NCBI GenBank assembly: GCA_012798975.1
Contig: JAAZME010000144.1
Coordinates: 1 to 10,547, forward strand
From: Gallicola sp.
GTDB taxonomy: Bacteria > Bacillota > Clostridia > Tissierellales > Peptoniphilaceae
DNA length: 10,547 bases
Direction of reading: 5' to 3'
Each line of letters begins with the position of its first letter. Positions within the stretch are counted from its first letter, which is position 1. Shown here one piece after another: positions 1,505-7,340 of the stretch. The notes under the pieces were generated by a model, which worked only from the letters and a program-made list of their open reading frames with translations, had not been told where the DNA came from and ran no database searches. The position numbers and the translations under genes are program-made.

Positions 1505-1557
1505 CCATATAAAAGTTCAATTACTAAATACCTATAGTAATGGAAAGAAGGAAACGA

Positions 1558-2553
1558 ATGGTTACGATCAATGAAATAGCAAAGCTTGCAAATGTTTCAA
1601 AGAGCACTATTTCCAGATATTTTAATGGAGGATCGGTAAGCCCCGAGACTCGAAAGAAGATTCAGGTAGTGGTTCAGAAAACGAATTATCAGCCAAATGC
1701 ATTTGCACAGAGTCTGAAAGCCAGTGTCAGCCCGTTAGTCGCTACAGTAGTTCCTCGATTAGACGGCCATTCTTTAAATATAAGTTTAGAGTCTATCGAT
1801 GAAATTCTTTACAAAAACAAAAATACACTATGCCTTGTGAATACAACTCAAGACCTGAATAAAGAGGTGGAGTCTTTAGAAGAACTGGAAAGGATGAAGG
1901 TCGGCGGGATTATACTCTTTGCAACAGCCGTTACGGATAAGCTAAAAAAAGCTTTATCAAATATAGAAATACCGGTGGTTGTTGTGGGACAGAAAATCGA
2001 CGGAATCCATTGTATACGTAATGATGACTATTATGCTGCTCGGATATTGGCGGAGTATCTTTTACGTTTAGGACATAGAAAGTTTTTGTATTTTGGAGTA
2101 AAGAAATATGATGAAGCAGTAGGAGTATATCGTCAGAAGGGGCTCTTTGATATTCTTCAAAGAGAAGGAGTGGAAATAGAATATCAAGAATGTGAATTTT
2201 TAGCAGACTATTCTAAAAACGAAGCAATGAAGATACTTCCTGATACAAATGCGACCTGTGTTGTCTGTGCAACAGACAATATTGCTTTAGGTGTTCATAG
2301 AGCTTGCTATGAACTTGGAATAAACATACCGGAAGATTTGAGTATCTGCGGTTTTGGCGGATATAGAGTGGGGGAGATGCTTTCTCCATCTCTTACAACA
2401 GTACAGATCGCCTTTGATCAAATTGGTACCTGTGCAGCAGAAAGTCTTATTGATCTCATGGCTCATAAAACGGTACCAACAGATCAAGTTTTTGAAGGAC
2501 GTTTAGAAATAAGGGAATCTACGAAATCCATAATTGACAATACTCTAAAATAG
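1558..2553 (+). CDS. scrR: LacI-family transcriptional regulator, probable sucrose operon repressor
   Basis: This 331-residue protein is a complete LacI/GalR-type regulator. An N-terminal helix-turn-helix (residues 2-25: VTINEIAKLANVSKSTISRY) is followed by the hinge region with YQPNAFAQSLKA (44-55). A periplasmic-binding-protein-like effector domain covers the rest and includes RLGHRKFLYFG and the conserved CATDNIALG. The F-N-G-G-S-V-S after the recognition helix resembles ScrR/SacR-type regulators. The start at 1558 is chosen because AAAGAAGGA lies just upstream (1544-1552) and the HTH begins two residues later; an in-frame ATG at 1540 has no ribosome site. It sits directly upstream of scrABK on the same strand, so sucrose control is inferred from context. 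The effector is unknown; a sugar or sugar phosphate is usual. Its 3' end carries the promoter for scrA. Confidence 0.88.
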   Translation: MVTINEIAKLANVSKSTISRYFNGGSVSPETRKKIQVVVQKTNYQPNAFAQSLKASVSPLVATVVPRLDGHSLNISLESIDEILYKNKNTLCLVNTTQDLNKEVESLEELERMKVGGIILFATAVTDKLKKALSNIEIPVVVVGQKIDGIHCIRNDDYYAARILAEYLLRLGHRKFLYFGVKKYDEAVGVYRQKGLFDILQREGVEIEYQECEFLADYSKNEAMKILPDTNATCVVCATDNIALGVHRACYELGINIPEDLSICGFGGYRVGEMLSPSLTTVQIAFDQIGTCAAESLIDLMAHKTVPTDQVFEGRLEIRESTKSIIDNTLK

Positions 2554-2561
2554 AATATACT
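2534..2561 (+). promoter_or_regulatory. Strong promoter for scrABK, inside the end of scrR
   Basis: TTGACA (2534-2539) is separated by 16 bp from TATACT (2556-2561), close to the housekeeping sigma consensus. The -35 lies within the last codons of scrR, and the -10 begins three bases after its stop. Transcription would start near 2568, inside the first of two inverted repeats, which is a classic position for repressor control. Confidence 0.7.
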
Positions 2562-2563
2562 AA

Positions 2564-2590
2564 AGATAGAAGAAATCGTTACTTCTATCT
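2564..2590 (+). promoter_or_regulatory. Inverted repeat at the predicted scrA transcription start
   Basis: The 9-bp arms AGATAGAAG (2564-2572) and CTTCTATCT (2582-2590) are perfectly complementary around a 9-base centre. The repeat overlaps the expected start of transcription from the scrA promoter. No T tract follows, so it is a poor terminator for scrR. It could be an operator for a dimeric repressor, or a hairpin at the 5' end of the mRNA. It does not match the usual LacI-family operator with a central CG. Confidence 0.5.
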
Positions 2591-2595
2591 AACAG

Positions 2596-2625
2596 TTTTG
2601 GAACCGGTACCTAACGGTTTCAAAA
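2596..2625 (+). promoter_or_regulatory. Second inverted repeat in the scrA leader, candidate ScrR operator
   Basis: The left arm TTTTGGAACCG (2596-2606) faces the right arm CGGTTTCAAAA (2615-2625) across 8 bases. As RNA the arms form an 11-bp stem with one G-U pair. The half-sites TGRAACCG and CGGTTYCA resemble LacI-family half-operators, but here they are set about one helical turn further apart than in the normal sites, where both halves share one central CG. It lies downstream of the promoter and about 10 bases before the ribosome site. A roadblock operator or a leader hairpin are both possible. Confidence 0.5.
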
Positions 2626-2648
2626 TACATCACAAAAAGGAGAATAAG

Positions 2649-4064
2649 ATGAATCACAAGAAAACGGCAAAAGATATTATTGATTACGCTGGAGGAAAAG
2701 AAAATATCAAAGCGGTAGAACATCGCGCGACGAGACTTAGAATTGAAGTGTTGGAAGAAGACAAGATCCAAAAAGAAGAGATCGAAGAACTTGAAGGCGT
2801 GAAAGGGGCTATGTTCCATTCGGGACAATATCAGATTATATTAGGTACCGGGACAGTAAACAAAGTTTACAATGAAGTAATAAAAATGGAAAATTTTGAG
2901 ACAGGTTCTTCAAGGAATGCGGCAGAGAAAGCAAGGGAAATCCATGATCGCCAAGATGGTTTCAAAAAAGTGATCCGTGTTTTTTCTGATGTTTTTGTAC
3001 CGATTATTCCTGTTCTTGTTGCAACGGGACTGTTTATGGGGCTTAGAGGATTATTAACGAATGAAGTATTTCTAGGGTTTTTCGGCTCCTCACCAGAAAG
3101 TATAAATCCTAATTTCATTTTGTATACTCAAGTTTTAACAGATACTGCCTTTGCATTTTTGCCTGCATTAGTGTGTTGGTCTACATTTAAAGTTTTCGGA
3201 GGTTCCCCGGTGTTGGGAATTGTACTGGGACTGATGCTTGTAAATCCAGTGCTTCCGAATGCGTATGAGGTGGGAAATGGTGCAGCAGATCCTTTGATGA
3301 TCTTAGGTTTCATTCCTGTGACCGGTTATCAAGGCAGTGTACTTCCGGCTTTTATCGCGGGGATAATAGGGGCAAAATTCGAAAACTGGGTTAGAAGCTG
3401 GATGGCAGATGCTTTGGATTTATTATTAACACCATTTTTAACTCTTTTATTTATGAGTGCAGCATCTTTGTTTATTATTGGTCCAGTATTTCATTTGTTA
3501 GAAAATGCCATTCTAGTTTTAACCCAAGGGATACTATATCTGCCTTTGGGGCTTGCAGGACTTCTTATCGGAGGGGTACAGCAGGTGGTGGTTATCTTTG
3601 GAATTCATCATGTGCTGAATGCTTTGGAAATACAGCTTTTAGCTCAAACAGGAGCAAATCCTTTCAACCCTCTCCTTTCTGCAGCAGTAGCAGGGCAGGC
3701 GGGAGCAGTTTTAGCAGTGGCGGTGAAAACTAAAGATGAAAAATTAAAATCTATCGCTTTTCCTTCAGCTTTATCTGCATTATTAGGAATTACAGAACCG
3801 GCTATATATGGTATAAATCTTAGATTTTTCAAACCATTTGTTTGCGGTATGATAGGGGGCGCTGCAGGAGGATTTATTGCTTCTTTATTGAATCTGGCTG
3901 CAACAGGAATGGCAGTTACGGTAATTCCTGGGCTTCTTCTATTCTTAAATAATCAGATCTTCGGCTATATTATTGCGATAGCAGCGGCAATAATTGTAAG
4001 TTTTGCAGCAACCTGGTTTTTTGGATATCGGGATGAAATGTTAAAAGGCGATGGGATAGAATGA
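2649..4064 (+). CDS. scrA: PTS sucrose-type EIIBC permease lacking the EIIB phosphorylation cysteine
   Basis: This 471-residue protein has the Glc-superfamily EIIBC layout: EIIB at about residues 1-80, a linker, then a membrane EIIC domain (about 105-462) with roughly ten helices. EIIC carries VTGYQGSVLPAF (224-235), FGIHHVLNALEI (317-328) and GITEPAIYGINLRF (380-393), the substrate-binding motif. A sucrose specificity is inferred from the downstream ScrB and ScrK; the fold alone would also fit related disaccharides. Sucrose EIIBC proteins normally lack EIIA and borrow a glucose-type EIIA. The oddity is in EIIB: the motif normally read as H-C-x-T-R-L-R is HRATRLR here, so the phosphorylatable Cys is Arg26 (CGC at 2724-2726), and no cysteine remains in residues 1-95. 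The frame is otherwise intact. The start is ATG 2649 with AAGGAG at 2637-2642; an in-frame TTG at 2598 lies inside the leader inverted repeat. The stop overlaps scrB by 4 bp. Confidence 0.88.
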   Translation: MNHKKTAKDIIDYAGGKENIKAVEHRATRLRIEVLEEDKIQKEEIEELEGVKGAMFHSGQYQIILGTGTVNKVYNEVIKMENFETGSSRNAAEKAREIHDRQDGFKKVIRVFSDVFVPIIPVLVATGLFMGLRGLLTNEVFLGFFGSSPESINPNFILYTQVLTDTAFAFLPALVCWSTFKVFGGSPVLGIVLGLMLVNPVLPNAYEVGNGAADPLMILGFIPVTGYQGSVLPAFIAGIIGAKFENWVRSWMADALDLLLTPFLTLLFMSAASLFIIGPVFHLLENAILVLTQGILYLPLGLAGLLIGGVQQVVVIFGIHHVLNALEIQLLAQTGANPFNPLLSAAVAGQAGAVLAVAVKTKDEKLKSIAFPSALSALLGITEPAIYGINLRFFKPFVCGMIGGAAGGFIASLLNLAATGMAVTVIPGLLLFLNNQIFGYIIAIAAAIIVSFAATWFFGYRDEMLKGDGIE

Positions 4065-5488
4065 AACTAAAGAAAGAATTTTTGTATCGCACGATAAAAG
4101 AGGCAAAAGACGGAGAGCTGGAAGAACTGCGGAGAAAGGCTTTGAACTCTCTTTGGAGACAAAATTATCATATCCAGCCTCCATACGGTCTCCTAAATGA
4201 TCCCAATGGATTTTGCCAATTAGTAGACGGCAGCTGGAAGCTCTTTTATCAGTGGTTTCCTTATGGACCTGTTCACGGGATGAAACATTGGTATGAAGTA
4301 GGTTCCGATGACTTAGTACATTGGAAAAATAGAGGACCCGCTCTTATACCGGACAGTCCCTATGATGATTACGGCTGCTACTCTGGCAGCGGATTTATTG
4401 CAGAAGGCGAATATCGTGTTTTTTATACCGGAAATCATCGGGATGAACATTGGAATCGAAAATCGGTACAGATCATTGCAAGGGAAAAGAACGGAGTATT
4501 AAAGAAAGAATTGCCCGCTATTGCAGATGTGCCTGAAGAATCGACAGAAGACTTCCGAGATCCTTTCGTTTGGAAAGAGGGGCGAGGCTATAAAGCAGTT
4601 ATCGGCGCTCGTTTAAGAGGGGATAAGGGAGCTGTGTTTTTTTATGAGTCAGAAAATGGACTACAATGGCAGGAAAAAAACTGCTTTACTTTAGGAAAAG
4701 AATTTGGCTATATGTGGGAATGTCCCAATATTGCCGAAATAGACGGAAAGATTATATTAATATTCTGCCCTCAAGGACTGGAAGATCTCCGTTACGAAAA
4801 CATCTATCCGGCGGTTTATTTAATAGGAACTAAAGAGGAGTTTGATAAAGAAACCGCCGCACTGCTGGATTATGGTTTTGATTATTATGCACCGCAGATT
4901 GCAAAAGACAGTAAGGGGAAGTATATATTGATAGCATGGATGGGGCTTCCAGAGATTGAATACCCCAGCGATAAAGATGAGTGGGCCCATTGTATGACAG
5001 TTCCAAGAGAGCTTTCGTTAAAGGAAGGGAGACTTTATCAAAAACCTGTGGAAGATCTAAAGCTGTTAAGAAAAAATCCTCAGTTATATAAAACAGACAA
5101 GGATATAGAGATAGAACTTTCAGAAGAAAAAGCATATGAATTTATAATAAGAACTTCTGGGGATTTTGAGTGCAGTTTGTTTTATAATACGGAAAAGAAA
5201 AAAGGGTTTTTGATAGAATATCATGAAAAGAAAAAGCTTCTTCGAATAGACCGCAGCGGGTTGGAGAACACTTTCGGCGAAAAATACGGCAGTACTCGAG
5301 AGATTAACTTGGAAGATTCTAGCCTTTTAAGAATTTTTACGGATAAAAGCAGTATCGAGATTTTTACAGAAGAGGGGACTGTGCTAAGTTCTAGAGTTTT
5401 TCCTATACCCTTAGAAAAAGACTGTTGTTTTAAAGGGGAAGGAGAAATCGAAATATATTCTCTGGAGAAGATAGAAGGGATCCAGTAA
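4061..5488 (+). CDS. scrB: Sucrose-6-phosphate hydrolase (GH32 invertase family)
   Basis: This 475-residue cytoplasmic enzyme (no signal peptide) belongs to glycoside hydrolase family 32 and should cleave sucrose-6-phosphate to glucose-6-phosphate and fructose. The three GH32 active-site motifs are intact: LLNDPNG at 44-50 with nucleophile Asp47, FRDP at 165-168 with transition-state Asp167, and WECPN at 219-223 with acid/base Glu220. A five-bladed propeller covers about residues 35-335, and a C-terminal beta-sandwich follows to the end. The length is typical of ScrB/SacA. The start overlaps the scrA stop (ATGA), and only a weak ribosome site is visible, so translation is probably coupled to scrA. 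Because GH32 enzymes of this type often also accept unphosphorylated sucrose, it could still work if ScrA does not phosphorylate. Plain invertase or fructanase activity is less likely given the PTS context. Confidence 0.92.
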   Translation: MKLKKEFLYRTIKEAKDGELEELRRKALNSLWRQNYHIQPPYGLLNDPNGFCQLVDGSWKLFYQWFPYGPVHGMKHWYEVGSDDLVHWKNRGPALIPDSPYDDYGCYSGSGFIAEGEYRVFYTGNHRDEHWNRKSVQIIAREKNGVLKKELPAIADVPEESTEDFRDPFVWKEGRGYKAVIGARLRGDKGAVFFYESENGLQWQEKNCFTLGKEFGYMWECPNIAEIDGKIILIFCPQGLEDLRYENIYPAVYLIGTKEEFDKETAALLDYGFDYYAPQIAKDSKGKYILIAWMGLPEIEYPSDKDEWAHCMTVPRELSLKEGRLYQKPVEDLKLLRKNPQLYKTDKDIEIELSEEKAYEFIIRTSGDFECSLFYNTEKKKGFLIEYHEKKKLLRIDRSGLENTFGEKYGSTREINLEDSSLLRIFTDKSSIEIFTEEGTVLSSRVFPIPLEKDCCFKGEGEIEIYSLEKIEGIQ

Positions 5489-6818: not shown

Positions 6819-7340
6819 ATGAGTCCTATTATAATTGCCTTGTTGGCAGGATTAGCCTCTGTGTTTAATTTTCATATTGGGAACGGAGGATTGAGAGTAT
6901 CCTTAGGAATTATTGTCCTGATTATAGCTTTATACAAATACGAAAAGCTGAATGTACTGAAAACCTCTTTATTATCCGGGATAGCAGTGTTCGTGGTGAG
7001 AATCATTTTAGACTATGCCGGGACAGGTTCTGTAGACGAAACAGTTTTATATCATGCCCTTGAGATTATCTTCTACTTAGTGTATGGTTTTCTATTTGAT
7101 CTCATGGTTCGAAAAGATACGTCTGTCTATAAATCTCCGTTGATTCTCGTGTTAATGTTATGCGATTTTGGTGCGAATGCAGCAGAATATCTAGCTCGAT
7201 TTTTATTTCTGCAATCCGCTATCGTACCAGTAGATTTCCAAACAGTGTTTTTAGCAGCTTTTATCCGATCTGCTGTGATTTGGGTGATTATCCATTTTGT
7301 ATTCAAACTCGATGAGTCTAAACACGCTTTCACGAAATAG
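6819..7340 (+). CDS. Six-helix membrane protein resembling a sensor-kinase input domain
   Basis: This 173-residue hydrophobic protein has six predicted transmembrane segments, at about residues 3-17, 24-40, 47-65, 77-97, 106-121 and 141-163. Conserved-looking features are the short loop FNFHIGNGGLRVSLG (16-30), the Y-K-Y-x-K-L after helix 2, and CDFGANAAEYLAR (115-127) in and after helix 5. From memory, this pattern resembles the N-terminal membrane region of certain clostridial histidine kinases; that is a recollection, not a search result. Here the protein ends about ten residues after helix 6 (KLDESKHAFTK), exactly where a linker and kinase would begin, and no kinase sequence follows. AAAGGAG at 6804-6810 supports the start. 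It precedes the AGCS symporter on the same strand by 108 bp, separated by a strong hairpin. Possible roles are a stand-alone membrane sensor, a transporter-associated protein (for example ECF-S-like), or a relic. Function unknown. Confidence 0.75.
   Translation: MSPIIIALLAGLASVFNFHIGNGGLRVSLGIIVLIIALYKYEKLNVLKTSLLSGIAVFVVRIILDYAGTGSVDETVLYHALEIIFYLVYGFLFDLMVRKDTSVYKSPLILVLMLCDFGANAAEYLARFLFLQSAIVPVDFQTVFLAAFIRSAVIWVIIHFVFKLDESKHAFTK

What the first reader, a model, noticed from the sequence alone, without database searches (positions are those of the whole stretch)
2724..2726. EIIB phosphorylation cysteine of the sucrose permease is arginine
In Glc-superfamily EIIB domains, phosphate passes from EIIA to a Cys in an H-C-x-T-R-L-R motif before going to the sugar. 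Here the motif reads HRATRLR. Codon 26 is CGC, one transition away from TGC, and no other Cys is present in residues 1-95. The rest of scrA, scrB and scrK looks intact. Possible explanations are a recent loss-of-function mutation, a sequencing error, complementation by another EIIB in trans, or a permease working as an unphosphorylated sucrose carrier whose sugar is then split by ScrB.
Basis: partly seen in the sequence, partly recalled or inferred. Interest (0 to 1): 0.7.

Follow-up and report, generated by a model that had tools for sequence, protein, structure and literature searches.

The report
Sucrose transporter missing its catalytic cysteine
A bacterial sucrose-uptake gene carries arginine instead of the cysteine that normally passes phosphate to the sugar; the related genes examined keep the cysteine, so this is most likely a one-off disabling change (or a misread base) rather than a new kind of transporter.

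Summary
In detail: scrA runs 2649-4064 (+), codon 26 at 2724-2726 is CGC (Arg), and the protein's only cysteines, 176 and 399, lie in EIIC. The site is the catalytic one: 38 of 38 related EIIBC loci examined have Cys there, as do 114 of 116 distinct EIIB motifs in 161 held sequences; the other exception is a degenerate extra EIIB in L037. The rest of this EIIB deviates from relatives no more than linker plus EIIC (6/32 against 35/221 invariant columns, p = 0.62). The scrR-scrA-scrB-scrK frames are open; the genome holds EI, HPr, an EIIA and two other Cys-bearing EIIBs. Three of seven family genomes with a close ScrA have scrA or scrB broken in other ways. Best reading: a recent private substitution that abolishes PEP-dependent phosphorylation by this permease. 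A consensus error is not excluded: no genus-mate is held and no reads are available. An uncoupled carrier or help in trans has literature precedent only. Interest is low.

The parts
1540..2553 (+). scrR-like LacI-family repressor gene (337 aa)
   Evidence: Pfam LacI + Peripla_BP_3; 36-41% identical to genes beside scrA in five of the relatives' loci and in L075
2597..2614 (.). overlapping inverted repeat (palindrome) just before scrA, candidate operator for the LacI-family repressor
   Evidence: the repeat finder I2, 83% complementary; role inferred
2649..4064 (+). scrA, sucrose-type PTS EIIBC permease (471 aa): EIIB about 1-80, linker, EIIC about 111-460
   Evidence: TIGR01996 554.2 bits (cut-off 559.3); PF00367 37.6 and PF02378 136.4 bits; 58-62% identity over nearly the whole length to relatives
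2724..2726 (+). codon 26, CGC (Arg) at the EIIB phosphorylation-cysteine position
   Evidence: Cys in 38 of 38 related loci examined
4061..5488 (+). scrB, sucrose-6-phosphate hydrolase family (475 aa), start overlapping the scrA stop
   Evidence: TIGR01322 447.7 bits over its cut-off 356.4; PF00251 and PF08244
5495..6445 (+). scrK-like PfkB-family fructokinase (316 aa)
   Evidence: NF006957 277.8 bits, below its cut-off of 450; PF00294

Best explanation
This is an ordinary ScrA/SacP-type sucrose PTS permease gene in an ordinary scrRABK gene cluster, in which the EIIB phosphorylation cysteine has recently been replaced by arginine in this one lineage. Shown: the substitution, the lack of a substitute Cys in EIIB, Cys in the related loci examined, and the otherwise open reading frames. 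Inferred: EIIB cannot take phosphate from EIIA, so PEP-dependent sucrose uptake and phosphorylation by this permease is lost or strongly reduced. The change is inferred to be recent because the rest of EIIB has not drifted. Loss of sucrose use would fit the breakage of the same locus in several relatives.
For: Codon and absence of another EIIB Cys. Cys in 38 of 38 related EIIBC loci and 114 of 116 distinct EIIB motifs. EIIB otherwise conserved: 6/32 deviations in residues 1-80 against 35/221 in 81-460, at columns invariant in 8 relatives (two of them probably one species), Fisher p = 0.62; the Thr and both Arg of the motif are kept. Each of the 11 genes in the window has a single, terminal stop. 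Of 7 family genomes with a close ScrA (58-65% identity), three have a broken scr gene: G111 scrA split by an insertion with an 8-base direct repeat on both sides, G081 scrA with a stop at codon 406, G096 scrB cut short.
Against: No second strain, genus-mate or reads were available, so a real mutation is not shown. EIIC, scrB and scrK are undamaged, which a long-standing loss would not predict. Not all relatives lose the locus: G088 has scrA and scrB full length and [Eubacterium] yurii L035 has scrA, scrB and scrK matched over nearly their whole length. The assembly has 375 contigs and contig C324 carries two apparently split genes, so base errors may exist in it.
Confidence: 0.6

Rival explanations
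1. Consensus or assembly error: the organism carries Cys at codon 26 and the Arg codon is a wrong base call or a minority strain variant.
For: The assembly has 375 contigs and is 82% complete. The treB-like gene and a neighbouring channel-like gene on contig C324 are each split between two frames within about 2.3 kb, which could be sequence errors. No relative examined shares the Arg.
Against: The window's own 11 genes are free of internal stops, and the other 19 of 20 sampled contigs showed no equally obvious split gene by eye (no homology test was made and a few overlapping frames were not followed up). An error hitting exactly this codon is unlikely a priori, though the scan selected for oddities.
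Confidence: 0.22
2. ScrA now works uncoupled: it lets unphosphorylated sucrose in, and ScrB splits it to glucose and fructose, which a glucokinase and ScrK phosphorylate.
For: EIIC, scrB and scrK are intact, and two ROK-family proteins, possible glucokinases, are in the genome. Precedents: E. coli TreB is reported to pass maltose, and probably low levels of sucrose, unphosphorylated (PMC3938415, passages); uncoupled PtsG mutants taking up unphosphorylated glucose are mentioned (PMC3901232, passages).
Against: TreB-mediated sucrose entry was too low for growth without CscB, and the same paper says EII facilitated diffusion speeds up markedly when the EII is phosphorylated, which an EIIB without its site could not be. 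The passages seen do not describe loss of the EIIB site as a way to uncouple. One substitution not shared by relatives is no sign of adaptation.
Confidence: 0.1
3. Another EIIB phosphorylates the sugar on ScrA's EIIC in trans (glucose-type EIICB on C201 or the trehalose-type EIIBC on C324).
For: Both carry the Cys motif, and a stand-alone EIIA, HPr and EI are present. Cross talk is known within the glucose family, shown between EIIA and EIIB, and the same paper cites full activity of an EIIC and EIIB expressed split at their linker, so an EIIB need not be covalently attached (PMC6148471, abstract and passages).
Against: The same paper cites EIIB-to-sugar transfer between subunits as less efficient than EIIA-to-EIIB transfer, and separating the domains of B. 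subtilis PtsG impaired it. The C324 gene is split between frames in the assembly.
Confidence: 0.06

Closest known systems
ScrA/SacP sucrose-specific PTS EIIBC (TIGR01996)
   Same: Domain order EIIB-EIIC without EIIA; 58-62% identity to several ScrA proteins over nearly the whole length; beside scrB and scrK
   Different: Arg instead of the catalytic EIIB Cys; 5 bits under the family cut-off (of four Cys-bearing relatives tested, three are over it and L049 is 14 bits under it)
E. coli TreB carrying maltose or sucrose unphosphorylated (PMC3938415, passages)
   Same: An EIIBC related to sucrose permeases for which entry of an unphosphorylated disaccharide is reported
   Different: By recall TreB keeps its Cys; it phosphorylates trehalose, and the unphosphorylated entry is a side activity

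Membership tests
ScrA/SacP sucrose PTS EIIBC | EIIB and EIIC domains in that order | tested here: met
   PF00367 37.6 bits (cut-off 27), PF02378 136.4 bits (cut-off 30.7)
ScrA/SacP sucrose PTS EIIBC | Score over the TIGR01996 equivalog cut-off | tested here: not met
   554.2 against 559.3; of four Cys-bearing relatives three pass and one misses it, 545.3
ScrA/SacP sucrose PTS EIIBC | EIIB phosphorylation cysteine | tested here: not met
   Arg26; Cys in 38 of 38 related loci examined
ScrA/SacP sucrose PTS EIIBC | Gene beside a sucrose-6-phosphate hydrolase | tested here: met
   scrB over the TIGR01322 cut-off, start overlapping the scrA stop
ScrA/SacP sucrose PTS EIIBC | PEP-dependent phosphorylation of sucrose | not testable with these tools
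   needs a biochemical assay
Uncoupled sugar facilitator derived from a PTS EII | Transport of unphosphorylated sugar | not testable with these tools
   needs an uptake assay

The most novel reading that the evidence does not exclude
Arg26 is fixed in this species and functional: either ScrA has become a phosphate-free sucrose carrier feeding ScrB and ScrK, or, most boldly, the arginine itself takes the phosphate from EIIA as phosphoarginine and hands it to sucrose.
Probability: 0.05. Interest if true: 0.75.

Novelty: new member of a known kind. Interest (0 to 1): 0.15.

Why it matters
If real and fixed it would be a natural example of a PTS permease whose transport and phosphorylation are uncoupled at the EIIB site. 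As it stands it mainly shows that annotation by homology would call this gene a working sucrose PTS permease although its catalytic residue is missing.

Tried and rejected
Alternative location of the catalytic Cys: rejected, because the 38 related loci examined have it at this column and the window protein has no other Cys in EIIB.

Generalised decay of the gene: not supported; EIIB deviates no more than linker plus EIIC at invariant columns.

A second sucrose EIIBC in the genome: none at E <= 0.001 besides the trehalose-type gene on C324 and the glucose-type EIICB on C201; the assembly is only 82% complete.

Viral contigs gave no relative. One search listed all three papers used (PMC6148471, PMC3938415, PMC3901232), of which I saw passages only; two searches gave further listings, of which I opened nothing else. 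No structure prediction was run, as it would not decide between error and mutation.

Limits of the counts. The 38 loci are L034, L035, L044-L049, L129 and L132-L160; they range from 36 to 62% identity to the window protein, so the more distant ones may carry other sugars. L132-L160 are 29 of the 33 other matches that one search listed (4 had no locus and were not read), from 398 genomes drawn evenly from a larger group. L034 and L044 look like one species. L005 and L026 (more distant, Cys), and the EIIB piece L075 (Cys), are not in the 38. Loci were returned best-score first, which favours canonical motifs among the 116; the 38 were collected by whole-protein similarity and are not biased that way. 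The profile used for the 116 was built from 83 motifs that included the window's own. L003 and L004 are copies of the window. One search did not list all its matches.

Full report
Observation. scrA runs from ATG 2649 to 4064; its codon 26 (2724-2726) reads CGC inside H-R-A-T-R-L-R. The 471-aa product has Cys only at 176 and 399. Its start follows an overlapping palindrome at 2597-2614, a plausible operator for the LacI-family gene upstream (inferred). Its stop overlaps the start of scrB, and a PfkB-type fructokinase gene follows.

Is this the catalytic position? Yes. phmmer against solved structures aligns residues 3-81 with the EIIB of 3ipj (67 bits) and residues 8-73 with E. coli glucose EIIB 1iba (23 bits); Arg26 falls on the Cys of the motif. 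That this Cys is the phosphorylation site is established knowledge of the glucose superfamily (recalled; the B. [quoted passage not shown]

How unusual is it? A profile built from 83 motifs in held loci was run on six-frame translations of 161 sequences, the window and 160 loci. It found 116 distinct motifs with a residue at the site: 114 Cys and 2 Arg. One Arg is the window (with its copies L003 and L004). The other is in L037, at the front of a protein that has a second, Cys-bearing EIIB; there the whole motif is degenerate (RRGHRLS). Of 38 related EIIBC loci (36-62% identity) from named genomes, the family, the phylum and one plasmid record, 38 have Cys. The 12 loci examined for the codon all use the same Cys codon, and the window's codon is not one base away from it.

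Is the domain decaying? No sign of it. At columns invariant among eight close relatives, the window deviates at 6 of 32 in residues 1-80 and 35 of 221 in residues 81-460 (Fisher p = 0.62). EIIB identity to the eight close relatives (50-59%) lies within the 49-68% seen between four Cys-bearing members of that set. So Arg26 stands out alone as a catalytic loss, as expected of a recent change or an error. Residue 57, His here and Asn in the eight relatives, is another difference in EIIB, of unknown effect.

Genome context. The assembly contains EI (C13), HPr (C13 and C201), a stand-alone glucose-type EIIA (C338) and two more EIIBs with intact motifs: a glucose-type EIICB on C201 and a ScrA-related EIIBC on C324 next to a TreC-like gene (the glucose and trehalose labels are by eye). 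The C324 gene is split between two reading frames, as is an aquaporin-like gene beside it (label by eye), which may be errors or real damage. No second sucrose permease was found. Two ROK-family proteins could be glucokinases.

The same locus in relatives. In 130 family genomes, the window's own included, seven others have a ScrA at 58-65% identity. In G111 scrA is interrupted between EIIB and EIIC; the two parts lie near contig ends, one beside a transposase-like ORF, and CAACAGGT stands on both sides of the break (transposase label by eye). In G081 there is a stop at codon 406. In G096 scrB matches only over residues 10-256 and lies beside an integrase-like ORF (label by eye). Anaerococcus vaginalis L034 shows the same short scrB match. 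Hence the sucrose locus breaks more than once in this family, which makes a private disabling substitution unremarkable. Against this, G088 keeps scrA, scrB and a divergent regulator, and [Eubacterium] yurii L035 keeps scrA, scrB and scrK. In G092, G074 and G084 no scrB lies within the short fetched flanks, which says nothing about the rest of those genomes.

Interpretation. The best-supported reading is a recent private substitution that disables PEP-dependent phosphorylation (0.6). A consensus error comes next (0.22), because the genus has no other member held and no reads are available. An uncoupled carrier (0.1) has precedents in TreB and in PtsG mutants (PMC3938415 and PMC3901232, passages), but in the TreB case the flux was too low for growth, and facilitated diffusion is said to speed up on phosphorylation of the EII. 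Help in trans (0.06) is possible, since an EIIB split from its EIIC is cited as fully active, but EIIB-to-sugar transfer between subunits is cited as less efficient (PMC6148471, passage).

Membership. By domains, identity and neighbourhood the gene is homologous to ScrA/SacP; the catalytic feature of a working PTS EIIB was tested and is not met, so it should not be annotated as a functional sucrose PTS permease without an assay. The novelty label chosen, a new member of a known kind, means an apparently inactivated (or misread) member, not a new function.

Noticed in passing
L099 (G000:C324) 2352-3067 and 3150-4666: An aquaporin-like gene and a TreB-like EIIBC gene next to each other (labels by eye) are both split between two reading frames, while 19 other sampled contigs showed no equally obvious case by eye; either local sequence errors or a damaged region.
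   Followed up: partly
L075 and L050 (G111:C23 and C33): scrA of a relative is interrupted between its EIIB and EIIC parts by an IS-like insertion (label by eye, resembling IS256) with an 8-base direct repeat on both sides.
   Followed up: yes
L037 6740-8452: An EIIBC protein with an additional, degenerate EIIB-like stretch without Cys in front of its normal EIIB.
   Followed up: partly
L044 2916-3767: scrB of a relative matches the window's ScrB only over residues 10-256 and lies beside an integrase-like ORF (label by eye); A. vaginalis L034 shows the same short match.
   Followed up: partly
window 6819-7340: A 173-aa membrane-like protein (by eye) without any Pfam or NCBIfam match at E <= 0.001.
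   Followed up: no
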